Shown: positions 22,619-57,136 of the stretch, piece by piece | Position numbering within the stretch: the first letter of the stretch is position 1 | Layout: each line of letters opens with the position of its first letter | Notes under the pieces: generated by a model | The model's database searches: none | The model's input: only the letters and a program-made list of their open reading frames with translations | Told to the model about the DNA's origin: nothing | Made by a program: the position numbers and the translations under genes | Origin: Harmothoe impar | Lineage: Eukaryota > Annelida > Polychaeta > Phyllodocida > Polynoidae | Assembly: GCA_947462335.1 (NCBI GenBank) | Contig: OX381704.1 | Location: 26,001,955 to 26,065,954 of the forward strand | DNA length: 64,000 nt | Direction of reading: 5' to 3'

Positions 22619-22968
22619 GGACAGACCCGGGCAAAGAACGGAACAAGACCCCGACAACGCTCACATCACTGTGCATGGTGTTTAACTTTAATACATGGGC
22701 CCCCAGAAATTGGGATGTAACGTCGTTGGTATCTGGGAGACGTTGACATGCATAAAGATTTTTAAAACGATACAGCGAAACTCTAGTTATAAATGAGCAC
22801 CTCCTAAATAATTGTATTCATAATATAACTTTATTTTTTGTTGGTTTATGGTATTAAACATGCAGGTCAAATCTGAGGTTGGGACCAACGTTTCGGTCCT
22901 TTGTTTTGATGTCTAAATAGACTAGAAATGCTCTAAAAATATAATTTAAGATGTAAAATTACACGTAC

Positions 22969-23913
22969 CTTGATGATGTGCTGGTTGTTGAAAGCCTGCA
23001 GCAGTAACATCTCTTTTAACAGTTTCTGACTGGCCAGGTGGTAACAGGCCACTGGTCCCTTCCCCTGCCTCTCCCCACATGCCGCCATGTCGTGCCCGGC
23101 CAGGTCCACAGTTTTGACGGCTACGGGCTCACCACGGCCCGGGTCGTCGGCACGGTACACAGTCTTGGTCCACCCGGACCCCACGTACTCCCGGCCCGTG
23201 AGGCCGTGCACGTACCCGCACCGGGACCCGCCCGACAGGAGCCGCCGCAGCTCTACAGCCGGCACGTCTATTACCCTCCTGGGGGTGTTACTGTGAGGTG
23301 TACTACCCCCACCGTGTAAGGTATGTACTCCAGGGTCCAACCCATCACCTTGTATAGCTACTGGGTGGAAGTACAGAGCGCTGTCCTCCAGGTTGTTACT
23401 GGAGTGGCCGGGTGGAGGATAGGGCTGATGGTCTCCAGTGGGTTTGGCACCGAGCACAAGTTTGTTTGTCTCCTCCAGGTGAGGTCTGTGCTGGAGGTGT
23501 GCCTCAGGTCCCCACTCCCTCCTGTTCCCCATCAGCTTCCTAAGCCGTGCTTCACCAAACCCATGACTTCCCGCCTCGTCCAACTGCGGCTGTAAGATCC
23601 CAATATCCACTCCCCCAGCCTTTCTCCCCACTCCCCCACCTACCATGTACCCCAAAGCTTCCAGCGCCAGTACAGGTAATCCCTCCAGCACCCCAGCGTC
23701 CACTAACGTGGTACCGGAAGTGCGCGCGCCTTGTACTTCCGGCGCGTTGAGCTGGTCGTCGTATGCGGCCATGTCGCGGTAGGCCTGTGAGAAGCCGGAG
23801 TGGAGGATGTAGAGGTTGCCGACCAGGAACACCACGCCGCACGTTATAGACATGGCCGACAGCGGCGACACACCGCGCCACCGACCCCGCGACCGCTTCT
23901 TCCAACCCATCAT
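22969..23913 (-). CDS. PKDCC: PKDCC exon 1: signal anchor, linker, kinase N-lobe
   Basis: Encodes 315 codons from ATG at 23913 (a second ATG follows at once) to donor AAG|GTACGT. Residues 1-16 are basic and about 19-38 are hydrophobic, a signal or signal-anchor expected for a secretory-pathway kinase. Residues about 45-235 form a Pro/Gly/His-rich linker longer than in vertebrate VLK. The kinase domain starts at about residue 238. The glycine loop is GREYVGSGWTKTVYRA (240-255), the ATP lysine lies in VAVKTVDL (Lys267), and the alpha-C Glu lies in KLLKEMLLL (Glu301). The exon is GC-rich and CpG-rich. The identification rests on the join with exons 2-5, which together read as VLK. The full gene phosphorylates tyrosines on luminal and secreted proteins in that family. 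Confidence 0.88.
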
Positions 23914-24349
23914 CGACCGTTTCCGCTTCCGCCGCGACCAGCGCCGACCACCGCACCTGCAGGGCTATGAGGACAGAAGCCGCTCAGGATGCGGCAAATC
24001 AACATGCTGTCGTCGCGCGGCGGGGTGGTGGTGGTGGTGGTCCTTGGATGGAGGGATCCCAGAACTAGCTATTCAGATCAGGTTGGTGGAGTGGCGAGCT
24101 GTAGACAGATCCATACTGATCCTCTCCCAGCAGGGCCTGGTGCCGGGATCGATGTCCGTGATCAGGTCGTGGATCAGGGGTGGATGTCGACAGATCCCAC
24201 CTGGATCCTGGAGTGACGCGTGTCCGTGCTGGAGTCCGGCCGGATCAGGTCCGTAATGAGAACAGGGGAGTGTGGTGTAACACTGATTGAAGGAGGATCC
24301 TGCAGACCGGGTAGCAGAGATCTCTCAACATGCAGCAACTCTGTGGTCC
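23914..24349 (-). other. Probable PKDCC 5'UTR (start-exon part)
   Basis: Upstream of the ATG the minus strand runs GC-rich back to a strong acceptor TTTATATTTTCCAG ending at 24350. The sequence between would be 5'UTR in the same exon as the start codon. Inferred from the splice signal only. Confidence 0.45.
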
Positions 24350-31883: not shown

Positions 31884-34479
31884 CACTGATAATAATGGAC
31901 CTGGAAATGTTAGTCACTACGGACTACATTTCTATAGTCACATGAATGTAGCAAAAACGACTATACCAAGTTAGTCACTTATGTCTATAGTAAGTTAGTC
32001 ATATAGTCAACCTATAGTCAGCCATTAAATTGGCTGATTTGGGCTATATAGTCAAGTGACTATGAATTTAATGGTTTCATGGTCTAAAGTAGTCACTATG
32101 ACTAATAGATATAGTCAATCATGAGAAATAAGGGAAACTTAATTACTGAAGGCAGGTCAAGGTTCAGCAGGGTAAACATGGCTAGGATAAAGCAGGGCAG
32201 GGGACAGGCCAGGATAAGGCAGGCCAGGGGACAAGCTAGGATAAGGCAGGGCAGGGGACAGGTTAGGAAAAAGCAGGGCAGAGACAGGCTAGGATAAGGC
32301 AGTGCAGGGGACAGGTGAGGATGAGGCATGGCAGGTGACAGGCTAGGATGAGGCAGGGCAGGGGACAAGCTAAGATAAGGCAGGGCAGGGGACAGGCTAG
32401 GATAAAGCAGGGCAGGGGACAGGCTAGGATAAGGCAGGCCAGGGGACAGGCTAGGATAAAGCAGGGCAGGGACAAGCTAGAATGAGGCAGGGCAGGGGAC
32501 AGGCTAGGATGAGGCAGGCCAGGTGACAGGCTAGGATAAGGCAGGCCAGGAGACAGGCTAGGATATGGCAAGGCGGGGGAAAGGCTAGGATAAAGCAGGG
32601 CAGGGGACAAGCTAGGATGAGGCAGGGCAGAGGACAGGCTAGGATAAAGCAGGGCAGGAGACAGGCTAATAGGATAGGGCAGGGCAGGGACAGGCTAGGA
32701 TGAGGCAGGGCAGGGGACAGGCTAGGACAAGGCAGGGCAGGTGACAGGCTAGGATAAGGCAGGGCAGGGGACAAGCTAGGATAAGGCAGGCCAGGGGACA
32801 GGCTAGGATAAGGCAATGCAGGGGACAAGCTAGGATAAGGCAGAGCAGGTAACAGGCTAGGATGAGGCAGGGCAGGGACAGGCTAGGATAAGGCAGGGCA
32901 GGGCAGATGCTAGGATAGGACAGGGACAGGCTAGGATAAGGCAGGGCAGGGGACAGGCTAGGATAAGGCAGGCCAGGGGACAAGCTAGGTTCAAACAGGC
33001 CAAGGGAAAGGCTAGGATGAGGCAGGACAGGGGACAGGCTAGGATAAGGCAGGCCAGGGAACAGGCTAGGATTATGCAGGCCAGGGGACAGGCTAGGATG
33101 AGGCAGGGCAGGTGACAGGCTAGGATAAGGCAGGCCAGGAGACAAGCTAGGATTAGGCAAGGTAGGGGACAGGCTAGGATAAGGCAGGCCAGGGGACAAG
33201 CTAGGTTAAAACAGGCCAGGAGACAGGCTAGGATGAGGCAGGGCAGGGGACAGGCTAGGATAAGGCAGGCCAGGGAACAGGCTAGGATAAAGCAGGGCAG
33301 GGACAAGCTAGAATGAGGCAGGCCTGGGGACAAGCTAGGATAAGGCAGGCCAGGGGACAAGCTAGGTTAAAACAGGCCAGGGGACAGGCTAGGATGAGGC
33401 AGGGCAGGAGACAGGCTAGGATAAGGCAGGCCAGGAGACAAGCTAGGATTAGGCAAGACAGGGGACAGGCTAGGATAAACAGGGCAGGGACAAGCTAGGA
33501 TGAGGCAGGGCAGGGAACAAGCTAGGATGAGGCAGGGCAGGGGACAGGCTAATAGGATAGGGCAGGGCATGGCAGGGACAGGCTAGGATGAGAGGAGGGC
33601 AGGTGACAGGCTAGGATAAGGCAGGGCAGGGGACAAGCTAGGATAAGGCAGGCCAGGGGACAGGCTAGGATTATGCAGGCCAGGGGACAGGCTAGGATAA
33701 GGCAGCGCAGGTAACAGGCTAGGATAAGGCAGGCCAGAGGACAAGCTAGGATAAGGCAGGGTAGGTGACAGGCCAGGATAAAGCAGGACAGGGACAGGCT
33801 AGGATAAGGCAGGGCAGGGCACATGCTAGGATAGGGCAGGGACAGGCTAGGATGAGGCAGGGAAGGGGACAGGCTAGGATAAGGCAGGGCAGGTGAAAGG
33901 CTAGGATAAGGCAGGCCAGGGGACAGGCTAGGATAAGACAGGCTAGGGGACAGGCTAGGATAAGGCAGGCCAGGGGACAAGCTAGGATAAGGCAGGCAGG
34001 GGACAAGCTAGGATAAGACAGGCCAGGGGACAGGCTATGATAAGGCAGAGCAGGTGACAGGCTCCTGTGTAGGCCTATCATGCTCTGTCAGTCTAGACAT
34101 ACACTGTTCATGTATTTCCATGTTATCAAAATTGGAACAAATTACCATGATAACTCTATCAAACATGAGAACTCATGCACCCTATAACATCTTAAGTTGT
34201 CATAGTCAACTGTAACATAACATATAACAAGCAGGGATATCCATAGAACAGTGGTTTAGGAAAGGATGTGCCTACCTGAAGTCCATGGACCACTCAAATT
34301 TGAATCCTAACTGTTTCCTGTGCACACATTCCTGTGACATCATCAATTTGTGTGATCCACATATAGTCACTACTGACTATCTTTATGACTAATATGTGAC
34401 TAAGTTGTATAGTCCCCTGACTACGGGGGTCGAAATATGATGGTATAGTCAGTACTGACTATAGGTTTTATTATCAGTG
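31884..34479. mobile_element. MITE of the CACTGATAATAA family, carrying minisatellite B
   Basis: Same family as 26597-28687 in inverse orientation. It starts CACTGATAATAATGG at 31884, ends TTATTATCAGTG at 34479, and has TA on both flanks. The outer 230-240 bases on each side match its sister, including GACTATAGG, GTTAGTCAC and the GATGATGTCA/TGACATCATC segment. The middle is a wholly different 27-bp tandem array. No transposase. Confidence 0.85.
32150..34065 (-). repeat. 27-bp minisatellite B, about 70 units
   Basis: Units of GATAAGGCAGGGCAGG, GGACAGGCTAG (27 bases) run for 1.9 kb with point variants and occasional shortened units. Since 27 is a multiple of three, every frame without a stop stays open, giving long minus-strand ORFs of nine-residue repeats (such as LACPLPCLI). 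I treat those as by-products of the period, not genes. Confidence 0.95.
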
Positions 34480-46624: not shown

Positions 46625-46630
46625 GGTGTG
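46625..46630 (+). repeat. Polinton target-site duplication, left
   Basis: GGTGTG immediately precedes the left TIR. The same six bases follow the right TIR at 57131-57136. Six-base duplications are the Polinton/Maverick hallmark. Confidence 0.95.
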
Positions 46631-47022
46631 AGTAGTATAGTATGTATCGGAACGGGACTATAGTTAAGTACTGTTTATTACTCAATCGACATGCAGCCAA
46701 TCAGAGGCCTCCATTTGGTCACGTGACCCGTTGCCATGGTAACGTGACCTACTTAGGGCTCTCAGCCAATCAGAAGCCAGCATTCTGGGTGACCTACTGA
46801 CCTACTTAGAAGCTCTCAGCCAATCAGAGGCCGGCATTCTGGTAACCATGGTAACGTGACCTAATTACGTCACGTGACCTACTTAGGCTCAGCCAATCAG
46901 AAGCCGGCATTCTGGTAACTAGGGTAACGTGACCTACTTAGGGTTTGTTTGTAAACAACACCACGTGGCTTTCTTGTTTGTAAACAACACCACGTGACAC
47001 GTGACTGTTTGTAAACAAACAA
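46631..47022 (+). repeat. Polinton left terminal inverted repeat (392 bp)
   Basis: Matches the inverse complement of 56739-57130 with five single-base differences and no gaps. The outer part contains four CCAATCAG or CCAATCAGA boxes (46697, 46766, 46820, 46893) and three paired GTAACC or GTTGCC plus GGTAAC motifs (46730-46743, 46842-46855, 46915-46928). It also has TCACGTGA at 46719 and 46870. The inner part has three TTTGTAAACAA words, each near CACGTG. An AATAAA on the minus strand sits at 46674-46679. Confidence 0.95.
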
Positions 47023-47090
47023 ACAAAAAAAAGTTATGTAACTTATATATAGAAATAAAAACACAACAAGATAATTTCTTTTCTTTTCAT

Positions 47091-47103
47091 TTTATTCTTT
47101 ATT
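47091..47103 (-). terminator. Two polyadenylation signals ending the minus-strand gene train
   Basis: TTTATT at 47091-47096 and 47098-47103 reads AATAAA twice on the minus strand. The pair lies 33-45 bases beyond the last small ORF stop, in a U-rich setting. It would serve the protease, the small ORF and possibly the upstream capsid transcripts. Confidence 0.65.
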
Positions 47104-47135
47104 TTTTCATTTTCAATCAGAAAAAACACACAAGT

Positions 47136-47435
47136 TTATGCTTTTTTAGCTCGCTTCTTCGATTTGCAGCAACTCAACAGGCCGCAAAGTCTCACGCCGC
47201 CGTCACTCGCACCACCACACCCCGGACGACTTTTCTCCAATAGACATTGCACGACTTTGGATAAATCCAACACCATTTCGGCAAGGCAGAGAATCTTTGT
47301 CTCCATGAAACGGCCGCCATCGCAACAACCCGTCACAACAGCATCATCGATAGCTTCTGACTCACGACCCGGTCGCTCAGCTTTGGGATTTTGCTCATGC
47401 GCCTGACGCACTTCTTGGGGTTTCTTGTTCGACAT
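47136..47435 (-). CDS. Small Polinton ORF, unknown, overlaps protease
   Basis: A 99-codon ORF from ATG at 47435, the last in the minus-strand train. It overlaps the 3' end of the protease by 103 bases in another frame. A shorter start (ATG at 47306, 56 residues) would avoid the overlap. The N-terminal third is charged and polar, the middle (METKILCLAEMVLDLSKVV) looks helical and amphipathic, and the tail has a Cys cluster (CGLLSCC) followed by lysines and arginine. I do not recognise the family. The position immediately before two polyadenylation signals favours expression, but chance opening cannot be excluded. Confidence 0.4.
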   Translation of the reverse strand: MSNKKPQEVRQAHEQNPKAERPGRESEAIDDAVVTGCCDGGRFMETKILCLAEMVLDLSKVVQCLLEKSRPGCGGASDGGVRLCGLLSCCKSKKRAKKA

Positions 47436-47785
47436 GCTTCAATTAGGAAATGAACGCAATGAGGTCCACAGGTGTCAGCAGAAGTGTCTTGTAGTTGAAT
47501 GCGGTTTCTTTGCCACTTGAACGGAGCAGAGCGTTCCACGAAAGACAAGAACTCCGCACTCAGCGGCGGTAAGCCGAAGGAATCAAAGTAGTACACTTCA
47601 CCCGTGCTCGACACGTAAAACGCCACCCAATGCTGACCTGGTAAATGTTGCGGATCTGTGTTGCTCACGAAACAAGTGTCTTTGATAGGGTGCTTCGGAA
47701 TAGTGTCACAAGAGAAAACGCCCAGGAAACGATGTTTTGTGTGAACGTTTTCCTTCAACACTCTGCTTATTTCAAGCGTGTTCAT
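47333..47785 (-). CDS. Adenain-like cysteine protease (PRO)
   Basis: A 150-residue protein. An open frame upstream extends to 47974 but has only a GTG there and runs through the capsid gene, so I use the ATG at 47785, 29 bases after the capsid stop. The C5 (adenovirus protease) catalytic series is visible in order: His52 in PGQHWVAFYV, Asp68 in YYFDSFG, Gln99 in QLQDTSADTCG and Cys106 in TCGPHCVHFL. In adenoviruses and Polintons this enzyme matures capsid and core proteins inside the assembling particle. It is shorter than adenovirus adenain (about 200 residues), as is common in Polintons. All catalytic residues are present. Confidence 0.93.
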   Translation of the reverse strand: MNTLEISRVLKENVHTKHRFLGVFSCDTIPKHPIKDTCFVSNTDPQHLPGQHWVAFYVSSTGEVYYFDSFGLPPLSAEFLSFVERSAPFKWQRNRIQLQDTSADTCGPHCVHFLIEACRTRNPKKCVRRMSKIPKLSDRVVSQKLSMMLL

Positions 47786-47814
47786 ACGATACGCCAAGTA
47801 CCGCCGTCTTGTCT

Positions 47815-49119
47815 TCAGTTCATGTGGTAGTCGGTGACGGGGTGTCGATCTCGGGTCAGCTCGACGACGTTGTCGTACACCAAGTAGAGTAGCACCGTTG
47901 TTGTCGCTTGTAGCGCCGAGCGGAAACTGACTTCCACCCTCAGCTGACCCGCTCTTATAAGGTTCACGCGACACCCGTCGTGCGATCTGTCTGGGGTTAA
48001 GTCGAGGGGGAACACCGTGTAACCGTTCAGGAATTGTTCGTATGAAATACCGCAGGAGCGCGCGCCCTCGTACATCCCCGTTTCCGTGTGTAGCGCCAAG
48101 TACTCTCTCACGGCCGCTTTGGTCTTAAAGTCGGGCACGTAGGCGTCGTTCGGCACTTTCTGATCGTTCACTATCACTTGAAGCGAGCTGATGTCGTAAT
48201 GCTTCATCTCGAACGGGTTCTTGGTGTAGCTACCGTTGAAGGCGTCGTGGTCAAGGAAGCAAATCATCATCGACTTGGGAAGCTGGCCTGTGTTGGAGTG
48301 CGTGTAGCTGTGATCTCTGTTACCTTGAGGGATGGCGTAGGTCGTCACCTCCACTCTGTTCACCGGGTAGTCGAAGGGCCCGTGTTCTATCACCGCTCTC
48401 TCGTGCGTTTCCGCTACAGCGTCCGCCACCAGCACGCGTCGCACGTAGAGCTTTGCTTTGTAGATCTTCAAGCTGTAGCCTCCGTCAGCGGCGCACATCA
48501 GATAGAAAGAGGGCGCCGCTTGTTTCAGAGTGAGATTGATTTCTGTCTCTCCAACGATGAGCTTCGGTTGATGAGCCAGGTCAAAGTGCAGTCGCGCCAT
48601 CAGCGAAAAGCGCTTGTTGGAGATTAGCTTCTTGCGCGCTTTGTACCCCGCATTCGCGTCAGTCAACGTGTCAAACTGACCGGGCGTATCTTCATGCCAC
48701 CCCTGGGCGCTCATGACGCCGTCCTTCACGTCTTTGTTGTAGTTGAGTAACCCTTCCAAGTAAGCTCGGTAAGGGTAGGTCTCGGTGTTGCCAGACACTT
48801 TGAAACCGCCGATGGAGACTTGGACGTCTTTGAAGAGCGAGTGAGCCAAGTTGTTCACCGGAGCTACCGCGTCGGTGGCCTCGATCGCCGCTCCGTCCTT
48901 TAGCACTTGACATTCCAGATGAAGGTAGTTCTCGTTCAGGTCTGTGTACTCTTGCGACTTGTTGATGGTGAAATTTATGTTACCTCCATCCTCTAAAGAG
49001 TTTTTTGTTTCTATCCCCAGGAAAGACGACTTTAAGATAGTAGTCTGAGTCGGCGCTACGGTGTGCAGGTCGAGCTCAGAGAGCGCGCACTCGTTACTGC
49101 TCTCGTGTACGTAAGCCAT
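47815..49119 (-). CDS. Double-jelly-roll major capsid protein (hexon-like)
   Basis: A 434-residue protein of the family often annotated in invertebrate genomes as F54H12.2-like, recognised as the Polinton major capsid protein. Diagnostic segments are the N-terminal YTDLNENYLHLECQV and LAHSLFKDVQVSIGG, the PYRAYLEGLLNY block near residue 120, and the C-terminal FPLDLTPD with RVEVSF and TTTVLLYLVYDN, where the second jelly roll ends. It should form pseudo-hexagonal trimers of the shell. It has its own TATA-like box about 55 bases upstream (49174-49181, minus strand) and starts at an ATG with A at -3. No frameshift. Downstream spacing to the protease is 29 bases. Confidence 0.93.
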   Translation of the reverse strand: MAYVHESSNECALSELDLHTVAPTQTTILKSSFLGIETKNSLEDGGNINFTINKSQEYTDLNENYLHLECQVLKDGAAIEATDAVAPVNNLAHSLFKDVQVSIGGFKVSGNTETYPYRAYLEGLLNYNKDVKDGVMSAQGWHEDTPGQFDTLTDANAGYKARKKLISNKRFSLMARLHFDLAHQPKLIVGETEINLTLKQAAPSFYLMCAADGGYSLKIYKAKLYVRRVLVADAVAETHERAVIEHGPFDYPVNRVEVTTYAIPQGNRDHSYTHSNTGQLPKSMMICFLDHDAFNGSYTKNPFEMKHYDISSLQVIVNDQKVPNDAYVPDFKTKAAVREYLALHTETGMYEGARSCGISYEQFLNGYTVFPLDLTPDRSHDGCRVNLIRAGQLRVEVSFRSALQATTTVLLYLVYDNVVELTRDRHPVTDYHMN

Positions 49120-49173
49120 TGTGTTCTCTCTTCACGCGGCCGACAGACTGACGCCGGCCCCCTCCAGTCTTTT

Positions 49174-49181
49174 TATTTATA
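49174..49181 (-). promoter_or_regulatory. TATA box of the capsid gene
   Basis: TATAAATA on the minus strand, in the only sizeable gap (79 bases) between the virion genes, 55 bases ahead of the major capsid ATG. The position fits a start site about 25 bases before the ATG. Implies separate transcription of the most abundant virion protein. Confidence 0.6.
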
Positions 49182-49198
49182 CCTGAACGCCTAGGCGC

Positions 49199-49630
49199 TT
49201 ACCGGTCGAATACATCCCCTCTACGTCTCTTGCAAGAGCCACCGCCCGTCTGAGGGGAATGCCCACGACGACGTTTCGACCCTTTCTTAGACGCGACAGA
49301 CGTCTTTCCTCCCGAGAACGCCGTACTCGCCAGTCTCTTCAGAGCGCCTGCGCCTCGGTCTTTCACGCTGCTCTTTAAAGTCCGACCCGCCAGCACATCT
49401 TTAGCTACGCCCACACCGGCGCGGAGCAGCGTTTTTCCCACCGACTTCAATAGCGGGGTAGCCGAGCGCATCAGACCTAACAGAGCGCCGCCTAAACCGT
49501 GCCCGCTCTGGAAAGAGCGCCCGCTGTACACGGTCACGCCGTTGCCCAGCTGCGCGTTGTAGTAATCGCTGTACCCTCTGCCGAAGTCGGTGCGCCTGGG
49601 TGGAAAGTACGGAACGCGTTGACGCATCAT
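49199..49630 (-). CDS. Basic virion protein with glycine-rich hydrophobic segment (pX/pVI-like)
   Basis: A 143-residue protein starting at a double ATG (49630). Residues about 43-83 (GHGLGGALLGLM, then PLLKSVGKTLLRAGVGVAKDVLAG) form a glycine-rich amphipathic or hydrophobic stretch. The C-terminal third is strongly basic with KRRR clusters, as in DNA-binding core peptides. Proteins of this build sit next to the capsid genes in many Polintons and adintoviruses and are compared with adenovirus pX or pVI. The exact homology is uncertain. Likely roles are genome condensation or membrane penetration. It starts 11 bases after the penton stop, and an A-run directly precedes the ATG. Confidence 0.75.
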   Translation of the reverse strand: MMRQRVPYFPPRRTDFGRGYSDYYNAQLGNGVTVYSGRSFQSGHGLGGALLGLMRSATPLLKSVGKTLLRAGVGVAKDVLAGRTLKSSVKDRGAGALKRLASTAFSGGKTSVASKKGSKRRRGHSPQTGGGSCKRRRGDVFDR

Positions 49631-49641
49631 TTTTCTCTCTT

Positions 49642-50760
49642 TCAGCGCTCAATAGGTCTCAGATGAAGTGTCACGGTCACCTCGCCTCTACCGAATGGGA
49701 TGGAATGACCGGATCGGTCTCTTAAATAGATGCCGACCTCGGTAAACCTCTTGGATTTCAAGGGGAAATAATCCAAATGGGGAAAACTGATAGCTTGCAC
49801 GCCACCTCGACGCTTTCCGCCTCTGTCCACCGCCACGCAGCGCAACAGCGGCACTTGCATGTCGCCCACACGTCTCTCCTGGATCATGTCGGTGTATATG
49901 TACACAGAGTGCACGTCCCCGTAAACATCCATCGAGTAGGCGCCGGTAGTCGGCGACGCGAAACACGTCTTCTCTCCGAAGCCTAGAACGCATGCGAGAT
50001 GCTGACTCAGCAGGACAGCACAGTGTCTCGGCGGTTTGATGGTGACGCGTTTCGTCTTGGCGTCGTACGATAAGATCCGCATCGGTTTGAGCAAGAAGCT
50101 GTCGCCCTCTAGTCTGTCATCTCGCAACGTCTCACTCAAGCGCTCGACTAGGGTGTGGTTGCTTCCGGTGAAAATAGGAGGTATCTCGAATATGTTTGGC
50201 ATGAAACTGCGCACTCCCATGTCCTTCTCCATCTTTTCGATCATCTGTCTTGCTTGATGGCTGATCGTCTTCTTCTTCACCGCCGGGGACAAGAACTGCT
50301 TGTATACGGCATTCGTCTGTCTCAAGTCGACCTCTCTCTTGAACCTTTTTGTTTCCGGTTTCAATTGCTGCTCTTCCGACGTGTCTGATATCTCTTCCAC
50401 CGTTACATAGCTCGCTTCCTTCCAGTTCAGCGGGAATTTTGAGCTGAACGTTAGCTTGCTCAGACCGTTCGCGTTTTTCATTCTCTTCCAGTCTACCTGT
50501 GGTTTTTTTCCTTCGGAGAAATTAGTTTCTTTTAAAACCTGGATCGCCTCCTCTAGCGAACCTTTGGTGCGCAGAGGAACAACGATGATCAAGTCGTCGT
50601 CGTGCACGTTAGTCCATTCTGTAGGGAGGATGATCTCAGTCAGAGCCGCTTCGTACGCTTCGGGCAGAAGGAGCGGCGAGTCGAAGTGAGTTCGGAAAGA
50701 CGTCAAGCTGTTGTCAGGATAATACTCCATAGAGCTGTTGCTAGGTAGAGTGATGTTCAT
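49642..50760 (-). CDS. Penton-like minor capsid protein
   Basis: A 372-residue protein. The N-terminus carries a beta-rich segment (YYPDNSLTSFRTHFDSP, then EAALTEIILPTEW, residues about 12-50). A polar, lysine/glutamate-rich middle (about 85-190) follows. The C-terminus has CVLGFGE and the signature FPHLDYFPLKSKRFTEVGIY followed by SGHSIPFGRGEVTVTLHLRP. This layout is the Polinton minor capsid protein (single jelly roll), expected at the fivefold vertices and usually found beside the major capsid gene. It begins four bases after the integrase stop, with a short A-run before its ATG. Intact. Confidence 0.88.
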   Translation of the reverse strand: MNITLPSNSSMEYYPDNSLTSFRTHFDSPLLLPEAYEAALTEIILPTEWTNVHDDDLIIVVPLRTKGSLEEAIQVLKETNFSEGKKPQVDWKRMKNANGLSKLTFSSKFPLNWKEASYVTVEEISDTSEEQQLKPETKRFKREVDLRQTNAVYKQFLSPAVKKKTISHQARQMIEKMEKDMGVRSFMPNIFEIPPIFTGSNHTLVERLSETLRDDRLEGDSFLLKPMRILSYDAKTKRVTIKPPRHCAVLLSQHLACVLGFGEKTCFASPTTGAYSMDVYGDVHSVYIYTDMIQERRVGDMQVPLLRCVAVDRGGKRRGGVQAISFPHLDYFPLKSKRFTEVGIYLRDRSGHSIPFGRGEVTVTLHLRPIER

Positions 50761-50764
50761 TTTG

Positions 50765-51901
50765 TTACGTTATTTTTTTGACGGGGATCCACTCGTTGAA
50801 CTTGTCGTCGTAACCTAACCAACGTACGAAAGCTAACTCTTTACCGTCGACGGTCTTGCGGCGCAACACCTCGTCTATCAGGTAGTTCTTGTCGTAACGA
50901 CTCTTGTACACCTTCTGAACCTCTTCCGGGTAGAAGACGCCTTTTATCTCCTCGCCCTTGTCGTCTTTCAGCTCGAACCCTCTGCTTCCCAACGTGTTAG
51001 CAACGTCCACCACTTCCTCGCGCCAGTTTCCCTCGTACCCTTTGTCGAAGGCGCCTTTGGTTCTCAACATCCTCACTCTGTCACCCGGAGCGATGACGTC
51101 GACGGCGGACGTCTTTGTTTTTTTCTTCTTTTTCCATATTTCGTCGATTTGTTTGTTAGTTGGGAGATCTTGTCGGTAGAAAACTGTTTCGCTGTTTTCC
51201 GAGCTGACTTGAGCCGGCGCCATTTTCAACGTCTTGTGGTGAGTGCGATTGTAAGAAGACACTACATGGTGCAGCACGTCTACGTAGCGATACGTGCGCT
51301 TGTGTGTGAAATAACGCCACAGCTTCTCCTTCAGACTGCGGTTCAAGCGCTCCACTAGACTAGCTTTGATGTCGTCGTTCTCGCCAGTGAAGAACTCTAT
51401 GCCCTCGCTCTTCAAGTGATCTTGAAAGATCTTGTTCAAAAACTCTTTCCCCTTGTCTGTCTGAACAGTGCGCGGTCGTCTCTCGCCAGGGCCTGTCATC
51501 TCTCGGAAGGCCTCGGTGACATCAGCGCCGCTCTTGGATTTAATGGGAACGGCCCACGCGTACCTAGAGAAAACGTCGATCGCCGTCACCACGTACCGGA
51601 AGCGGTCGTTGTGAGACGCCAAAGCTTGCATGTCCATCAGATCTATCTGCCACTGCTGATCGATTGCGCCGGTTATAGTCTTGTTCCTTGCGAATTTTCT
51701 CCGAATGGGTTTATGTTTAGTGTAGGCGTCCAGCGACACTAAAGCGTCTCGGATGACGGCCGGGTTCAGGTGGCGAAAATGCTGTTTCTGGAGTTTAGTC
51801 ACGCTAGTGAAACTGGAGGGCGCTTTGACGTCGGTATATCTAGCTACTACGCGCTTCTTTTCTTTTTCCTTCTTGGTCAGTCTCTTCACTGGTTTGCCCA
51901 T
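50765..51901 (-). CDS. Retrovirus-like DDE integrase with C-terminal chromodomain
   Basis: A 378-residue protein. The catalytic core runs from about residue 80: Asp87 in QWQIDLMDM, Asp149 in VQTDKGKEF and Glu184 in SLVERLNRSLKEKL, with 34 residues between the last two. About 270-333 is an SH3-like region (PGDRVRML to FYPEEVQKVY). Residues about 338-378 form a chromodomain (YLIDEVLRRK, then FVRWLGY and NEWIP). I do not see a full HHCC zinc motif in the lysine-rich N-terminus. Polinton integrases insert the linear DNA and make the 6-bp duplication seen here. The chromodomain probably steers insertion toward modified chromatin. The start overlaps the upstream gene by 16 bases. Confidence 0.95.
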   Translation of the reverse strand: MGKPVKRLTKKEKEKKRVVARYTDVKAPSSFTSVTKLQKQHFRHLNPAVIRDALVSLDAYTKHKPIRRKFARNKTITGAIDQQWQIDLMDMQALASHNDRFRYVVTAIDVFSRYAWAVPIKSKSGADVTEAFREMTGPGERRPRTVQTDKGKEFLNKIFQDHLKSEGIEFFTGENDDIKASLVERLNRSLKEKLWRYFTHKRTYRYVDVLHHVVSSYNRTHHKTLKMAPAQVSSENSETVFYRQDLPTNKQIDEIWKKKKKTKTSAVDVIAPGDRVRMLRTKGAFDKGYEGNWREEVVDVANTLGSRGFELKDDKGEEIKGVFYPEEVQKVYKSRYDKNYLIDEVLRRKTVDGKELAFVRWLGYDDKFNEWIPVKKIT

Positions 51902-53073
51902 CGCGGGTCTCTTGAGGGCGTGAAAGACGAGCTCGCCGCTAGGCGGTTGCGCGCTTTCCTTTTCTTACTACGCGGCGCGCTCCTATAGGAAGTCGGAGTT
52001 TGGAAAAGTTCACGGTCGTCCTCCTCGTCGTCAGAGGATTGATCGTCCACCACCTGCAGAGAAGAGTCTGCTGCTGCTACTGCTGCTGCTGCTGCTGCTG
52101 CTTCTCCTTCTTCCGATTCGAAGCTCGGTCGTTTCCGACCTCTGTCAGCAAGCCGTGTGTCCAAACTTTGGCCAGGTCCGCTCGCTTTATACAGATGGTT
52201 TCCGATCAAGGCGTCTGTGGTGGGAACCGCTTCGCGCAGCGCTTTCGTGAACGGCGAGTAGCCCGCCGGTCTGGGCGCCGTCTTCCTGAACCTGGCGGCG
52301 TCGTTCAGTAAGTCCACTATGTTGATGCGCTGCTCAGGTGGTATTCTCCGACCCGACATCTCGCGCACCGCCCCGTCCTCGTTCCACTTGATCACTCCGG
52401 ATTTCTCCAATTGTTTGTACAGCTCCACGGTCCGGCGGCGACTCCTCTTGGGAACTTGGTTCGCCAACCGCTCGAGTAGGGACGCGCTGGCCTCTTCAGC
52501 AGACTGACGGAGGTGAGCCGGGGGCGAAGAAGAGTAGGACGAAGAGATGTTGCTGTTGTGGGGATTCGCGAGAAAAAATTGCAATCTATTCAACAACCTT
52601 CGGTATTTCAACATTTTCTCGCGCGATTCCAAAGTGGGGTCGTTCAACACTAAATCCAAGTCCCTGTAGATAAACTGTAGCACCTGGTGCAAGGCCGCGT
52701 CGGGATGAAGGGACTGCTCTGCCTGCTTGTGGTAATAGGCCATGTCGGCGGGTAGGCGGGCGGCGGTGGCAGGAGCGGAACTCTCGTTCTTTTCAGTGCG
52801 CTCATCAGGAAGAGGAGGAAGGTTTGGAGCAGTAGAAGTACTAGCAGCAGCGACTGCAGTAGTAGCAGCGCTAGTAGTAGCAGCAGCAGCGGGCACATGA
52901 TGAAGTAGACCTGCTCGTGATGATTTGTAGAGCGTCTCAGGATCCACGAGCGCTAAACGTTTGTAGTGTTGTTGCTGCTCTGAGTCCGTCATGGGGACGC
53001 CGGTGGCAATGACGCTGGTGGTGGCGGTAGTGGTGGTGCTGTCGGCGAGTAGGTGTCGAATGACGTGTCTCAT
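51886..53073 (-). CDS. Conserved Polinton protein of unknown function
   Basis: A 395-residue protein. The first ~110 residues are Thr/Ala/Ser-rich and low-complexity. Residues about 110-170 are predicted helical (ALHQVLQFIYRDLDLVL). A block at about 206-292 (RRRTVELYKQLEKSGVIKWNEDG, then RINIVDLLNDAARFRKTAPRPAGYSPF) looks like a conserved module I associate with invertebrate Polinton-like elements beside the integrase; no function is known to me. An acidic Ala/Glu/Asp stretch and a basic KKRKARNR tail follow. The ATG at 53073 overlaps the stop of the preceding gene. A TATA-like word at about 53088-53096 could instead favour the ATG at 52992. The 16-base overlap with integrase suggests coupled expression. 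Confidence 0.75.
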   Translation of the reverse strand: MRHVIRHLLADSTTTTATTSVIATGVPMTDSEQQQHYKRLALVDPETLYKSSRAGLLHHVPAAAATTSAATTAVAAASTSTAPNLPPLPDERTEKNESSAPATAARLPADMAYYHKQAEQSLHPDAALHQVLQFIYRDLDLVLNDPTLESREKMLKYRRLLNRLQFFLANPHNSNISSSYSSSPPAHLRQSAEEASASLLERLANQVPKRSRRRTVELYKQLEKSGVIKWNEDGAVREMSGRRIPPEQRINIVDLLNDAARFRKTAPRPAGYSPFTKALREAVPTTDALIGNHLYKASGPGQSLDTRLADRGRKRPSFESEEGEAAAAAAAVAAADSSLQVVDDQSSDDEEDDRELFQTPTSYRSAPRSKKRKARNRLAASSSFTPSRDPRWANQ

Positions 53074-53402
53074 ATACGGAGAATGCTCTTTATAAGCGGT
53101 AAGGCCATCCCTATGAGAGCCGGAATGAGGAAACCTCCCTCTTGTACCAAGACGCGTCTCTTTTTTTTGATGGGCGTAGATTTTTTGCCGACCTCCCTCA
53201 ACACGTCAGCCGATTCTCGAAGCTTGTCCAGTTGTTTGTCGCTGAGCGGGATGTTCCCTACCAGTAAATTGTGACAGATCTCACTCAACGCTGCGATCAG
53301 CTCGTCGCTTCCAGAGTCTATTAGATGCGAGCAGTCCTTTGGCGAGCACTTAGCTAAGTGCTTGAGAGTACCAAAGTGTCTTTCGAGTAGATGAGAAGAC
53401 AT
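53070..53402 (-). CDS. Small Polinton protein with C-terminal hydrophobic segment
   Basis: A 110-residue protein. Residues about 33-70 (ELIAALSEICHNLLVGNIPLSDKQLDKLR) form a helical module that I recognise as recurrent in invertebrate Polinton-like elements. A basic cluster (KKKRR, 79-83) is followed by QEGGFLIPALIGMALPLI, a glycine-led hydrophobic tail to the end. The basic-then-hydrophobic layout resembles viral membrane-active or capsid-associated peptides. Function is inferred only. The start is set by an ATG right after a nine-A run. The stop overlaps the next start by four bases, and the gap to the ATPase stop is ten bases. Confidence 0.75.
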   Translation of the reverse strand: MSSHLLERHFGTLKHLAKCSPKDCSHLIDSGSDELIAALSEICHNLLVGNIPLSDKQLDKLRESADVLREVGKKSTPIKKKRRVLVQEGGFLIPALIGMALPLIKSILRI

Positions 53403-53412
53403 TTTTTTTTTG

Positions 53413-54132
53413 CTACTGCTTTCTGTTGTTCTTTTTTTTGTCTAGCGGTACGAACACTAGCTGAGAGTGTATGGCCGTCAAAGAGGAGCGTATTCTCAGA
53501 TCGTCAGGTGTTGACTGCTTGAAGTCCAGGAGGAGGTATGAGTGAGGTCGCTTGAGTTCATGGGTAAATATACTAGAGAGGGCCGCCGCGTTGGACGGAA
53601 ACACCTGGCGAGACAGACTAGCTATTTGCCCCATGTCGCGCGGGTTCTTGAAAACGATCATGTAGTGAGCGTTCAGACTCATAGTTCGAAAGTCGGGTGA
53701 TTTCTGGAAGAGGTTCTGAGTGATGTATATGACGCTCACGTTCCAGTGATGCGAGTATTTAGTAAAGATGTCGGCTACCACTTGCTGATTGGAACTGCTC
53801 ATCAGATCGTCCAATATCAGTAGAGTGTGGGGTCGTACAGCGTCTTCTGCTACTTCCACGTCTCCCGCTATAGACTCTTTGCTAGGAAGACCTTCTCTGA
53901 ATTCCACACCGTACCGATTTGCCATTTTTTCAAACAGAGGTTGCCACTCGCCGTAATGGTAAAAAGTCTTTTCCACCGGCGGCGTGACCAAATTGTTCAC
54001 GTCGCTCAGAAATTGATCCACCAAGCGCGATTTTCCACAACCCGACGGACCGCTAATGATACAACTAAAGGGTCCTTGTAGTCGAGCGTCGAAATGAATT
54101 TCTGTGAAGAGTTTGCTTTTACTACTGGACAT
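53413..54132 (-). CDS. Genome-packaging ATPase (FtsK/HerA, A32-like)
   Basis: A 239-residue protein. Walker A is GPSGCGKS at residues 28-35, Walker B is LLILDD at 104-109, and NVSVIYITQN at 131-140 ends in the polar sensor residue typical of viral packaging ATPases. The size and the SRQVFP and YLLLDF segments fit the Polinton ATPase. It should pump the linear genome into the preformed capsid. The ATG follows an A9-C-A9 tract directly. It is intact and lies upstream of the other virion genes, 350 bases from the preceding 216-residue gene. Confidence 0.93.
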   Translation of the reverse strand: MSSSKSKLFTEIHFDARLQGPFSCIISGPSGCGKSRLVDQFLSDVNNLVTPPVEKTFYHYGEWQPLFEKMANRYGVEFREGLPSKESIAGDVEVAEDAVRPHTLLILDDLMSSSNQQVVADIFTKYSHHWNVSVIYITQNLFQKSPDFRTMSLNAHYMIVFKNPRDMGQIASLSRQVFPSNAAALSSIFTHELKRPHSYLLLDFKQSTPDDLRIRSSLTAIHSQLVFVPLDKKKNNRKQ

Positions 54133-54334
54133 TTTTTTTTTGTTTTTTTTTCAGGACGCGTCAGAGAGCGGTTGTGTGTCTGACTGTCTGCTGTGTTTCT
54201 CACTCGAACGGTCGGTGGTGAATGGTTGTGGAGAAAAGTCCGCCGACCTTTTTATTGATTCCGGCCGGTGTCACAGTAGCGGCGGCAGAAGTGCTTTTTT
54301 TTTTGCGATAAAATTCTATTTTCACTCAATAGTC

Positions 54335-54381
54335 ATAAATGTTTGTATCAGACTCCAGAGGAGTCTGATACAAATATTTAT
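54335..54381. repeat. Near-perfect hairpin with 3-base loop
   Basis: TTTGTATCAGACTCC (54342-54356) and GGAGTCTGATACAAA (54360-54374) pair perfectly around loop AGA. Pairing continues outward for about six more A/T pairs after one G/T wobble. The minus-strand right side includes AATAAA. It could be a 3'-end signal, a protein-binding palindrome or a replication-linked structure. Confidence 0.85.
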
Positions 54382-54389
54382 TTTTTTTT

Positions 54390-54445
54390 AAAAAAAGAAG
54401 AAGAGGAGGAGGAGGAGGAGGAGGAGGAGGAGGAGGAGGAGGAGG

Positions 54446-54476
<31 letters not shown>
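54390..54476 (+). repeat. GAA/GAG purine microsatellite followed by T-run
   Basis: AAG and GAG repeats (about 54390-54448) are followed by about 28 T. A purine tract of this length can adopt triplex or slipped structures. It is directly next to the hairpin. Confidence 0.95.
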
Positions 54477-54482
54477 GATCAT

Positions 54483-55133
54483 TTAGGCAAAGCTCGTCGC
54501 TTTGCCGTTTTTTTTTCTATTTCTGTGTTGTGACACGATCGTCTCGAAAAAGCAATAAGGCGTGTGAGCGCGGCGGTGACAAATACATATTGGAGCGTAT
54601 GGTTTAAAATAGTGCGTCCCTATCTTCTTCAATTCGGCTGCGTTGCAATATGCGGGATAACAAGTGACGACGTCGAAACGTTTAGAGACCGTGTTCACGT
54701 CGGCCACAACGCGCGCCCACCGAGTGGGAGCTGCAGTCGCTCCCAAGAAACCGATCGGCTTGTCGAATCGTTTCATAGCACTTATTCTCACTTTATAAGA
54801 GGAGGCAGGGTGAGGAGAGTAGCGGCGCTCTTTCTTTTCATGAAACGCCCAACGAGTGGGGGCGCTGAGAGCAGCTGTTATGCAATAGTAGAGTAAATGC
54901 TGTTCTGAGAAGACGGCTCTCGGCCATGTCGCTACGTTTTCCTTTTCCGCTCTTGTATAACGACGATGGCGCTCAGCTTTGCATTTCTCGAGAATTCGGT
55001 ACGCCTCAAGAGAAGCGTGAACCTCAACTACGTGACGCTCTCTCCTTTGAGATAAAAAAATAGCCGGGCAGTTGAGGAGAGCGCTTTGTTCGCGCGACCG
55101 TCTTTTAGAAACTCGCGCCCTCTGCAGCGCCAT
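54483..55133 (-). CDS. Unknown basic Polinton protein
   Basis: A 216-residue protein from the first ATG (55133). The frame is open to 55175, but only from a TTG. It is rich in Arg, Lys, His and Cys. A short phrase, APTRWA, occurs twice about 45 residues apart in similar surroundings, suggesting an internal duplication. The C-terminal half has Cys/His pairs (CYPAYC, then ICICHRRAHTPYC) that might bind metal. I do not recognise a family, and it is not a piece of DNA polymerase B. The long open frame in balanced-GC sequence, a TATA box about 230 bases upstream and polyadenylation signals after the stop support it being a gene. It is first in the minus-strand train. Confidence 0.6.
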   Translation of the reverse strand: MALQRARVSKRRSREQSALLNCPAIFLSQRRERHVVEVHASLEAYRILEKCKAERHRRYTRAEKENVATWPRAVFSEQHLLYYCITAALSAPTRWAFHEKKERRYSPHPASSYKVRISAMKRFDKPIGFLGATAAPTRWARVVADVNTVSKRFDVVTCYPAYCNAAELKKIGTHYFKPYAPICICHRRAHTPYCFFETIVSQHRNRKKNGKATSFA

Positions 55134-55358
55134 ATTTCTTTCCTCCGAAACAAAAAAGCCTGAGTGAAAATACAAATTTAAGAAAACAAAAAAAAGCTCA
55201 AAGAAAAAAAATAAGCAATAAGCAGACTCAGCTCGAAATTCCCTGCTGGCGTGATGGCGGTGACTGCAGGCGGTGGCGGCGGTCGGCTGGCCGGCCGGCG
55301 GTGGCGGTGTCGGCGGCGATGGTAGAAGGGTGTGTGGAAAGAGAGACGCATCTCAGTC

Positions 55359-55368
55359 TTTTATAGGA
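55359..55368 (-). promoter_or_regulatory. TATA box for the minus-strand 216-residue gene
   Basis: CTATAAAAGA on the minus strand in the divergent control region. The leader to the ATG at 55133 would be about 200 bases and includes a strong acceptor-like pyrimidine tract ending CACTCAG just before the ATG, so a spliced leader is conceivable. Confidence 0.5.
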
Positions 55369-55870
55369 GCGGCGAGTCTGACATTTTCAGCTGTCGCATG
55401 CTGACCTGCTGCTAGCATAAGAGAAACAAAAGCCCTAATCACACTTTTCAGCTGGATCCTTCCACCCCGCCAGACATGGATCCCAGATGGGAAGGCGGTT
55501 TAAAATTAAATCCGTGTACCGACTGTCATACAATAGGGTAATTAGTTGAACGCGTGTTACCTGTATAAAGGATTAACGGGTCATGGGCTCAGCGTGTGTA
55601 TAGAAAAACAACTACAGGTAGCGTGAACAAAGCGACCCCCTCCCTTTCTGTCACTCTGTCTGTGACTAGAGGGTGCGCGTGTGGTAAGCGGCTTATATCT
55701 AAAGAAAAAAACAAATCACCCTCGCCTGTCATCAGCAGACAGCCGGCTGGCGGCTGGAAAATGCGATTAGAGGGATGATGAGCCACGTAGTAAGCGACTT
55801 AAGGCTGATCTAAAGACCTGCCGTGAAGGGGCAGCTGGCCGGTGGCTTGAAAAAAGGCGGGGCGTAAGGG

Positions 55871-55878
55871 TATATAAG
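55871..55878 (+). promoter_or_regulatory. TATA box of the Ala-rich gene
   Basis: TATATAAG in context GGGTATATAAGGGG. A start about 30 bases on falls near 55900, past the GTG at 55883. That supports the ATG at 56003 as the true start. Confidence 0.65.
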
Positions 55879-55917
55879 GGGAGTGAAACCACATTCAGCA
55901 TCGTCATCATCGTTCAC

Positions 55918-55918
55918 G

Positions 55919-55970
<52 letters not shown>
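55918..55970 (+). repeat. CTA trinucleotide microsatellite
   Basis: About 15 CTA units in the predicted 5'UTR of the plus-strand gene. Translated, it gives a poly-Leu run that could be mistaken for a signal peptide. Confidence 0.95.
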
Positions 55971-55972
<2 letters not shown>

Positions 55973-56002
55973 GCACCGCGCCTCAATTTGCAGATCCTCG
56001 TG

Positions 56003-56638
56003 ATGGAAAGTTGCTACCGTGACATGAAGCGGAATGACGAAGCGGCGCGCGAATGTGAAGCTGATGCTGTAGCCTCTGCTGCTGCTGCTGCTAGTGCTGC
56101 TCAGCGTGCTACTGCTGCATTTACTGCGGCTGTTAGTGACGCGGGTCGTGATGACGTTGTTGTTGTTGCCGCTGCGGCTGTGACTGCTGCTGTTGCTGCC
56201 GCCGATGCAGCTACTCATGCCACCGATGCCGACGCTGCTGCTGCTGATGCTGTTGCGGCTGCCGATGACGCCGCTGATAACGCTACTAGTGCCCGCTCTG
56301 CCGCCCTTGCTACTGTCGCTGCTGCTGTTGTTGCTAATGCTCACGCTACTGCTGCTGCCGCTGCTGCTACTGCTGCTACCGCTGCTGCCGAGGCTGCTGC
56401 CGCTGCTGCCGATGCTGCTGCCGATGCTGCCGATGCTGCTGCCGATGCTGATGTTAGCAGTCGCGTCGACAAAGAATCGTCATTTGTCACTCTTAAAGCC
56501 GCTCCAGTGGAACGCGCGACGGGTAGTAGGGCTACCAACGCGACGGCCGGATGGTGCAAATGGTGTCGTCGCTTCTGCTCGTGCGCTTGCTTTTCTTCCG
56601 GTCCTACCTGCTGCTGCTACGGTATGATAGTGTTATAG
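56003..56638 (+). CDS. Alanine-rich protein with cysteine-cluster tail
   Basis: The only plus-strand gene of the element, 211 residues from ATG at 56003. A longer frame begins at a GTG (55883) upstream of the predicted start site and includes a microsatellite-encoded Leu run, so I reject it. After a polar charged N-terminus, residues about 21-150 are mostly Ala with regularly placed Asp, Thr and Val (ADAAADAADAAADAD-like), which should be strongly helical. The last 28 residues contain eight Cys with Trp and Arg (KWCRRFCSCACF, then CCCYGMIVL), as in multiply palmitoylated or metal-binding tails. The gene is largely GCN/GAT repeat expansion, so homology would be hard to see. No family recognised. 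Possible roles are a particle or membrane component, or an inhibitor of something in the host. All speculative. Confidence 0.6.
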   Translation: MESCYRDMKRNDEAARECEADAVASAAAAASAAQRATAAFTAAVSDAGRDDVVVVAAAAVTAAVAAADAATHATDADAAAADAVAAADDAADNATSARSAALATVAAAVVANAHATAAAAAATAATAAAEAAAAAADAAADAADAAADADVSSRVDKESSFVTLKAAPVERATGSRATNATAGWCKWCRRFCSCACFSSGPTCCCYGMIVL

Positions 56639-56738
56639 TGTTTGAATGAGAACGCGCGTAGTTACAGATGTGCTTTTTTATTCGAAAATATAATTTTAAC
56701 ATAAGATGGAACTTGTTGTGTTTTTTTCTATATATACG
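56639..56738 (+). other. 3' spacer of the Ala-rich gene
   Basis: AT-rich, with no canonical AATAAA. The nearest plus-strand AATAAA is inside the right TIR at 57082-57087, which may serve as the 3'-end signal. Confidence 0.45.
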
Positions 56739-57130
56739 TTGTTTGTTTACAAACAGGCACGTGTCACGTGGTGTTGTTTACAAACAAGAGAGCCACGTGG
56801 TGTTGTTTACAAACAAACCCTAAGTAGGTCACGTTACCCTAGTTACCAGAATGCCGGCTTCTGATTGGCTGAGCCTAAGTAGGTCACGTGACGTAAGCAG
56901 GTCACGTTACCATGGTTACCAGAATGCCGGCCTCTCATTGGCTGAGAGCTTCTAAGTAGGTCAGTAGGTCACCCAGAATGCTGGCTTCTGATTGGCTGAG
57001 AGCCCTAAGTAGGTCACGTTACCATGGCAACGGGTCACGTGACCAAATGGAGGCCTCTGATTGGCTGCATGTCGATTGAGTAATAAACAGTACTTAACTA
57101 TAGTCCCGTTCCGATACATACTATACTACT
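56739..57130 (-). repeat. Polinton right terminal inverted repeat (392 bp)
   Basis: Inverse complement of 46631-47022 with five mismatches. It carries the same CCAAT, X-box-like, CACGTG and TTTGTAAACAA word series and ends ...CTATACTACT. The X-box-like GTTACCATGGCAAC lies at 57018-57031, exactly mirroring the left copy. Confidence 0.95.
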
Positions 57131-57136
57131 GGTGTG
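57131..57136 (+). repeat. Polinton target-site duplication, right
   Basis: GGTGTG, identical to 46625-46630. Confidence 0.95.

What the first reader, a model, noticed from the sequence alone, without database searches (positions are those of the whole stretch)
46631..57130. A 10.5-kb Polinton with a full virion kit but no DNA polymerase
Seen: exact 6-bp duplication, 392-bp TIRs with five differences, intact integrase, packaging ATPase, protease and both capsid genes. Known: Polintons are normally self-synthesising through a protein-primed PolB and are 15-20 kb. Here no PolB is encoded and every gap under 900 bases is accounted for. The intact ORFs and near-identical TIRs say it moved recently, so it probably relies on a polymerase supplied in trans, by the host or by a full-length relative. 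It would be a capsid-making, integrating element that outsources replication, a satellite-like lifestyle.
Basis: partly seen in the sequence, partly recalled or inferred. Interest (0 to 1): 0.88.

Follow-up and report, generated by a model that had tools for sequence, protein, structure and literature searches.

The report
Maverick provirus without its DNA polymerase
A 10.5-kb virus-like DNA element, likely in an animal genome, has open genes predicted to integrate, package and enclose its DNA but no DNA polymerase gene, so it is likely a deletion derivative of a known kind of element that would need a polymerase from a relative or the host to copy itself.

Summary
46631-57130 has an exact 6-bp target duplication, 392-bp inverted repeats with 5 differences, the published Maverick end motif AGTAGT//ACTACT, and eight packed minus-strand genes: ATPase, orf110, orf395, integrase, penton-like, orf143, major capsid protein, protease. 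A PolB profile finds no PolB anywhere in the 64 kb. Four related contigs in bacterial genome bins hold all or part of the same gene block in the same order; 3 of 4 also hold PolB, beside the ATPase (L001) or the protease (L003, L004). In the window 2,606 bp without a recognisable gene separate ATPase and right repeat in an otherwise tightly packed element. The likeliest reading is a PolB-deleted Maverick that would need a polymerase in trans. A second copy in the host genome would decide this; that search did not complete (15 attempts). PolB status of the closest relatives (MCP 72-95% identical) is unknown. Variant of a known kind; interest moderate.

The parts
46625..46630 (.). Left copy of the 6-bp target-site duplication (GGTGTG)
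   Evidence: Read directly; identical to 57131-57136
46631..47022 (+). Left terminal inverted repeat, 392 bp, begins AGTAGT; holds 5 CACGTG, 4 RRCCAATSRG and 2 X-box-like sites
   Evidence: end motif as in PMC8097293
47333..47785 (-). Adenovirus-type cysteine protease (PRO), 150 aa
   Evidence: Pfam Peptidase_C5 E=7.8e-5; weak match to adenain in PDB, E=0.07; homologs in L001, L003, L004, none found in L002
47815..49119 (-). Major capsid protein, 434 aa, F54H12.2-like family
   Evidence: 73 homologs; model pLDDT 84; Foldseek top hits are double-jelly-roll MCPs incl. mavirus
49199..49630 (-). orf143, small basic protein; sits where PW lies in vertebrate Mavericks (name by position only)
   Evidence: Homologs in the same place in L001-L004
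49642..50760 (-). Penton-like minor capsid protein, 372 aa, with an insert not in two relatives
   Evidence: Homologs in the same place in L001-L004; own model unreliable; assignment by position
50765..51901 (-). Retrovirus-type integrase, 378 aa, DD35E
   Evidence: Pfam rve E=3.2e-13, weak C-terminal chromodomain; catalytic residues
51886..53073 (-). orf395, conserved protein of unknown function
   Evidence: 5 homologs at 52-96%; counterpart in PolB-bearing L001
53070..53402 (-). orf110, small conserved protein
   Evidence: Homologs in L001 and L002 in the same place
53413..54132 (-). Genome-packaging-type ATPase, 239 aa
   Evidence: Pfam Adeno_IVa2 8.4e-5, Pox_A32 4e-4 below its cut-off; 45% identical to L001 ATPase
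54133..56738 (.). 2,606-bp stretch with no recognisable gene; PolB lies next to the ATPase on this side in L001
   Evidence: Six-frame Pfam scan gave no replication gene, only five matches under their cut-offs; PolB profile negative; gaps inside the gene block are -16 to 79 bp
54483..55133 (-). orf216, open frame longer than shuffles give, no known relative; possible accessory gene
   Evidence: Stop-to-stop 289 codons, reached by 0 of 500 shuffles of its surroundings and 1 of 500 of the 2.6-kb stretch, but also by 1 of 36 pieces of that size taken from window 1-48106; no significant match
56739..57130 (-). Right terminal inverted repeat, 392 bp, ends ACTACT
57131..57136 (.). Right copy of the target-site duplication (GGTGTG)

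Best explanation
This is a Maverick/Polinton-type provirus with no PolB gene, most likely because PolB was deleted from a PolB-bearing ancestor, and if it still replicates it would likely do so on a polymerase supplied in trans by a full-length relative. Shown: both ends, the target duplication, the open eight-gene block in the order of PolB-bearing relatives, and the absence of PolB. Inferred: that PolB was lost rather than never present. Inferred: that the element's own integrase would insert copies and its own capsid genes would package them, while a helper PolB recognises the shared kind of termini and copies the DNA. Untested: that the PolB-less form has ever moved.
For: Ends and TSD; AGTAGT//ACTACT is the commonest vertebrate Maverick end motif (PMC8097293). 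Colinear block ATP-110-395-INT-penton-143-MCP-PRO in L001 on one strand, with a PolB of at least 1,397 aa directly upstream of ATP. L003 and L004 hold penton-143-MCP-PRO and then PolB, convergent. The PolB profile detects these three, even in broken L003, but nothing in the window (best window piece E=4). Genes are packed at -16 to 79 bp, yet 2,606 bp lie between ATP and the right TIR. Size fits: Drosophila-associated adintovirus 1 is reported at 14.6 kb with PolB (PMC8363768 passages); this one is 10.5 kb, and the L001 PolB is 4.2 kb. All eight ORFs (2,221 codons) are open. Near relatives with open MCP and orf395 frames are listed, though a protein database shows open frames only.
Against: Only one copy was seen; the host genome could not be searched, so no helper element and no second PolB-less copy is known. 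The PolB-bearing relatives are distant (33-39% MCP identity) and disagree on where PolB sits, so the site of loss is uncertain. No TIR pair was found on any of the four related contigs (one AT-rich 43-nt pair in L002) and this TIR has no similarity to them, so shared ends rest on the literature alone. L002 also has most of the block, in decay, without a PolB signal in 21 kb, which leaves open that PolB-lessness is older. orf216 could be a gene that replaced PolB. The tandem repeats and T-run at 54403-54476 leave room for a misassembly.
Confidence: 0.5

Rival explanations
1. PolB was deleted after insertion. The element came in as an ordinary full-length Maverick and is now a single, replication-dead copy; the PolB-less form never moved.
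For: Needs one deletion and no helper. TSD, TIRs and the other genes would look exactly as seen. Vertebrate Mavericks are mostly degraded (PMC8097293 passages).
Against: The deletion would have to take the whole gene with no remnant of 15 or more codons that the profile can see and leave the ATPase and its upstream sequence; all eight other genes are open.
Confidence: 0.3
2. An established PolB-less lineage that copies itself with host enzymes or with an unrecognised replicase such as orf216.
For: orf216 is longer than shuffles give and stands where PolB lies next to ATP in L001; L002 also shows no PolB; many protist capsid-bearing integrated elements lack a detectable polymerase, though that paper warns that unknown replication enzymes may be missed (PMC10120064 passages).
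Against: orf216 has no significant relative in Pfam, PHROGs, NCBIfam, the PDB, the four loci or 198 fetched proteins, its codon use does not resemble the core genes (-0.037 against 0.07 to 0.155), and 1 of 36 other pieces of the window has as long a frame. No replication protein was recognised in ten ORFs or in six frames of the void; the only helicase-type matches are the packaging ATPase's own P-loop to RNA_helicase (20.8 bits, cut-off 21.5) and Viral_helicase1.
Confidence: 0.13
3. Assembly error: PolB is present in the animal but was lost from this assembly.
For: (GAG)15, a 28-base T-run and (CTA)16 lie in the void, places where assemblies misjoin.
Against: TIR, TSD and coding frames are all clean, and the void is filled with 2.6 kb of unlike sequence rather than a sharp join; reads were not available.
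Confidence: 0.07

Closest known systems
Maverick/Polinton elements of animals (vertebrate set of PMC8097293; F54H12.2-like MCP family)
   Same: 6-bp TSD, long TIRs with (AGT)2//(ACT)2 ends, rve integrase, packaging ATPase, adenovirus-type protease, MCP with double-jelly-roll fold, similar gene neighbours
   Different: No PolB; 10.5 kb against 12.7-24.6 kb for intact vertebrate elements
L001, Maverick-type contig in the 'endosymbiont of Escarpia laminata' bin
   Same: All eight genes, same order, same strand; 45% ATPase and 39% integrase identity
   Different: Carries a PolB of at least 1,397 aa directly upstream of the ATPase; no TIR pair on the contig
Adintoviruses
   Same: Adenovirus-type virion genes with an rve integrase
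   Different: Their definition asks for a PolB with an OTU-like domain (PMC11071296 passages); none here
Polinton-like viruses, virophages and Tlr elements without ordinary PolB
   Same: Capsid genes, ATPase and protease; some integrate; some depend on a helper virus
   Different: Those carry other replication proteins (helicase-polymerase fusions, primase-helicase; PMC11071308, PMC10120064 passages); none found here

Membership tests
Polinton/Maverick (self-synthesising) | Long TIRs with conserved end motif | tested here: met
   392 bp, 5 differences, AGTAGT//ACTACT (motif from PMC8097293)
Polinton/Maverick (self-synthesising) | 6-bp target-site duplication | tested here: met
   GGTGTG both sides
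Polinton/Maverick (self-synthesising) | Retrovirus-type (rve) integrase | tested here: met
   E=3.2e-13, DD35E
Polinton/Maverick (self-synthesising) | Protein-primed DNA polymerase B | tested here: not met
   Pfam on the void, tblastn and a PolB profile with three positive controls all negative
Polinton/Maverick (self-synthesising) | Packaging ATPase and adenovirus-type protease | tested here: met
   colinear homologs
Polinton/Maverick (self-synthesising) | Double-jelly-roll major capsid protein | tested here: met
   Predicted fold matches iridovirus, PBCV-1, mavirus and Sputnik MCPs, E to 2.7e-16
Polinton/Maverick (self-synthesising) | Minor capsid (penton) protein | tested here: inconclusive
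   Homologs in the right place, fold model too poor, no significant PDB match
Adintovirus | PolB with OTU-like domain | tested here: not met
   No PolB
Adintovirus | Integrase with C-terminal chromodomain | tested here: inconclusive
   Chromo E=0.0013, 19 bits against a 25.1 cut-off; L001 integrase passes at the same place
Polinton-like virus / Tlr type | Other replication protein (helicase, primase, PolA) in place of PolB | tested here: not met
   None recognised in ten ORFs or in six frames of the void, apart from sub-cut-off P-loop helicase matches of the packaging ATPase itself; an unknown replicase is not excluded
Helper-dependent satellite | Replication requires gene products of a helper | not testable with these tools
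   Host genome search not answered; no expression or infection data

The most novel reading that the evidence does not exclude
The element is a member of a lineage of satellite-like Mavericks: proviruses of animals that keep their own integrase and complete capsid kit but have given up PolB, spread as 10-kb capsid-making parasites of full-length Mavericks, and use shared kinds of TIRs to hijack their helper's polymerase.
Probability: 0.27. Interest if true: 0.78.

Novelty: new variant of a known kind. Interest (0 to 1): 0.45.

Why it matters
Mavericks are treated as self-synthesising, and the vertebrate survey PMC8097293 counts as intact only copies with a conserved ORF set that includes PolB, so PolB-less but otherwise whole copies would drop out as defective. 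If such elements spread, animal genomes hold the reverse of the usual non-autonomous transposon: an element that makes its own shell and integrase but borrows replication. It would make helper-satellite relations among animal Mavericks testable from sequence alone, by asking whether PolB-less copies are multi-copy and share TIRs with PolB-bearing ones.

Tried and rejected
Decayed PolB in the void: rejected; the profile found PolB pieces in the broken L003 but nothing in the window. PolB elsewhere in the 64 kb: rejected. orf395 as a replacement replicase: rejected, because PolB-bearing L001 carries its homolog. orf216 as a PolB remnant: rejected; no match to the profile, and none to 198 fetched proteins better than E=0.33. 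Exact 350-bp spacing from the ATPase start to the orf216 stop in the window and to the PolB stop in L001: noted, taken as coincidence. Pfam matches in six frames of the void (five, best PRIMA1 E=1.7e-5, all under their cut-offs): taken as low-complexity chance. IMG/VR: 4 scans with ATPase, P0007, MCP alignment and integrase alignment gave no relative. tRNA and Rfam scans empty. Penton model unusable. PDB matches of the MCP profile (10 chains, all forms of ribonuclease A, best E=0.003) judged chance beside the fold result. Dating: 5 of 392 gives K=0.0129, or 0.6-6.4 million years at assumed (recalled) rates of 1e-8 to 1e-9 per site per year. On that clock, eight ORFs free of lesions have a chance of 0.008-0.08 without selection, depending on the assumed indel rate, and 0.23 if nonsense changes alone are counted; so either the insertion is younger than the TIR differences say, or selection acted, or some of these differences were already there when it inserted.

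Print: nine paper searches listed no paper that I recognised as reporting a PolB-less animal Maverick with integrase and full capsid set. I saw the listings, passages of seven papers and one section of one of them. The library lacks most subscription journals and the adintovirus founding paper, so this is no proof of absence.
Full report
What is there. The window holds a bounded element at 46631-57130. Its two 392-bp inverted repeats differ at five positions, and an exact GGTGTG stands on both sides. The ends read AGTAGT and ACTACT, the commonest end motif reported for vertebrate Mavericks, which also have 6-bp target duplications (PMC8097293; passages and section 7 read). This ties the ends to Mavericks independently of the genes. 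The host is not identified; 'animal' is inferred from the MCP family and from relatives found in bins of animal symbionts.

Genes. Eight genes lie on the minus strand, read from right to left: ATPase, orf110, orf395, integrase, penton-like, orf143, MCP, protease. Gaps between them run from -16 to 79 bp. Pfam supports protease, integrase and ATPase; the integrase has D87, D149 and E184, the last two 35 apart. The MCP has 73 homologs at E<=0.001 among 5,490 candidates; the one informative name is 'F54H12.2-like', from Paramacrobiotus, a tardigrade. A model from 27 sequences (pLDDT 84) matches double-jelly-roll MCPs of iridovirus, PBCV-1, mavirus and Sputnik at E down to 2.7e-16. The penton call rests on homology and position only.

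No PolB. A six-frame Pfam scan of 54133-56738 shows no replication gene; its five matches are all under their cut-offs. tblastn with L001 PolB on the window gives nothing better than E=1.5. A sharper test used a profile of L001 PolB plus 44 homologs, searched without filters on 4,513 open pieces of 15 or more codons from the window and four related loci. It finds PolB in L001 (2,540 bits), L004 (462 bits) and the broken L003 (88, 50, 31 bits); the best window piece has E=4 and the best L002 piece E=0.94.

Relatives. A scan of bacterial and archaeal genome contigs with the MCP alignment gave 4 confirmed loci from 41 candidate stretches, all in genome bins (endosymbiont of Escarpia twice, Bathymodiolus symbiont, Breoghania). 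I infer that these are eukaryote, likely animal, contaminants. L001 carries all eight genes in the same order on one strand, with a PolB of at least 1,397 aa directly upstream of the ATPase. L003 and L004, short contigs, carry penton-143-MCP-PRO followed by PolB on the opposite strand. L002 carries the block from ATPase to MCP in decay, with extra integrase similarity to the left, no protease and no PolB signal in 21 kb. So 3 of 4 relatives have PolB, in two different places. None of the four shows a TIR pair beyond one AT-rich 43-nt match in L002, and the window TIR has no similarity to them, so ends could not be compared. In the window the protease side offers only 310 bp before the TIR, and the ATPase side 2,606 bp without a recognisable gene, against tight packing elsewhere. 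The window MCP groups with P0001-P0006 (72-95% identical) at 100/99 support, and P0007 is next (tree of 26 rows). The contigs of P0001-P0006 are at most 3,830 bp, so whether they have PolB is unknown.

Is there another replicase? orf395 is not a candidate, since PolB-bearing L001 has its homolog. The one gene-like minus-strand frame without a counterpart is orf216: stop-to-stop 289 codons, reached in 0 of 500 shuffles of its surroundings and 1 of 500 of the whole 2.6 kb, though also in 1 of 36 pieces of the same size from window 1-48106. Its codon use does not resemble the core genes, and it has no significant match in Pfam, PHROGs, NCBIfam, PDB or fetched sequence. The alanine-rich frame at 56003-56638 is a codon repeat. 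I treat orf216 as a possible accessory gene. The packaging ATPase itself has sub-cut-off P-loop matches to viral helicase families, as expected for such ATPases.

How it would work. Integration by the element's integrase, and packaging by its ATPase, protease and capsid, are predicted from gene content. Copying would have to be borrowed. A full-length Maverick in the same nucleus is the likeliest source, because protein-primed polymerases start at the ends and ends of this type are shared across Mavericks (established knowledge). The TIRs also carry 5 CACGTG, 4 RRCCAATSRG and 2 X-box-like palindromes per 392 bp, against 0.16, 0.012 and 0.013 on average in 1,000 shuffles, and none in the element's interior. 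By motif names I recall (E-box, NF-Y, RFX), they look like promoter or origin-enhancer arrays read by host factors.

What does not follow. A deletion after insertion leaves the same traces. The TIR clock even predicts about 1.7 nonsense changes and 1.6-6.2 frameshifts in the eight ORFs, where none is seen (P 0.008-0.08; nonsense alone 0.23). That points to a young insertion, to selection, or to TIR differences that predate the insertion. It does not say when PolB went. The decisive test, a second copy in the host genome, was asked for 15 times and never answered.

Setting in the literature. Intact vertebrate Mavericks measure 12.7-24.6 kb and are counted with a conserved ORF set including pPolB (PMC8097293). 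A complete adintovirus from a Drosophila sample is 14.6 kb with PolB and integrase (PMC8363768 passages). In protists, 'many' integrated capsid-bearing elements lack a detectable polymerase, with the warning that an unknown replication enzyme may be missed, and virophage-like dependence has been proposed for some groups (PMC10120064 passages). Virion genes of adenovirus type on genomes without recognisable PolB and integrase are also reported (PMC11071296 passages). A copy with integrase and virion genes but without PolB is therefore a variant of a known kind. My nine searches listed no paper that I recognised as reporting one in animals.

Verdict. Real, well bounded, correctly described in its main points. 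Likely a PolB-deleted Maverick; a satellite-like lineage is possible but unproven.

Noticed in passing
46631-47022 and 56739-57130: TIRs are arrays of CACGTG (5), RRCCAATSRG (4) and X-box-like palindromes (2), far above shuffles and absent from the interior; the left TIR also has two exact copies of a 23-bp unit with a forkhead-like core. Possible host-factor-driven promoter or origin (motif names recalled).
   Followed up: partly
L001, L002, L003, L004: Maverick-type contigs, likely from eukaryotic hosts, sit inside published bacterial genome bins (Escarpia and Bathymodiolus symbionts, Breoghania): contamination of reference genomes.
   Followed up: partly
L001:39-4232 against L003:3774-4706 and L004:2777-3607: In related elements PolB occupies two different places: upstream of the ATPase on the same strand, or convergent beside the protease, so gene modules are rearranged between relatives.
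   Followed up: partly
49642-50760: The penton-like protein (372 aa) is 108-120 residues longer than the two relatives aligned (264 and 252 aa); the extra residues lie between about 80 and 230.
   Followed up: no
19393-20651 and 32180-34063: Two large tandem arrays (47-bp unit, 27 copies; 27-bp unit, 70 copies), the second with strong strand skew in base composition.
   Followed up: no
22936-23964 minus: A 343-codon open frame in the host part, with no Pfam match and only two doubtful PDB matches; possibly a host exon.
   Followed up: partly
54483 against L001:4232: The distance between the ATPase start and the stop of the ORF upstream of it is 350 bp both for orf216 here and for PolB in L001; taken as coincidence.
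   Followed up: partly
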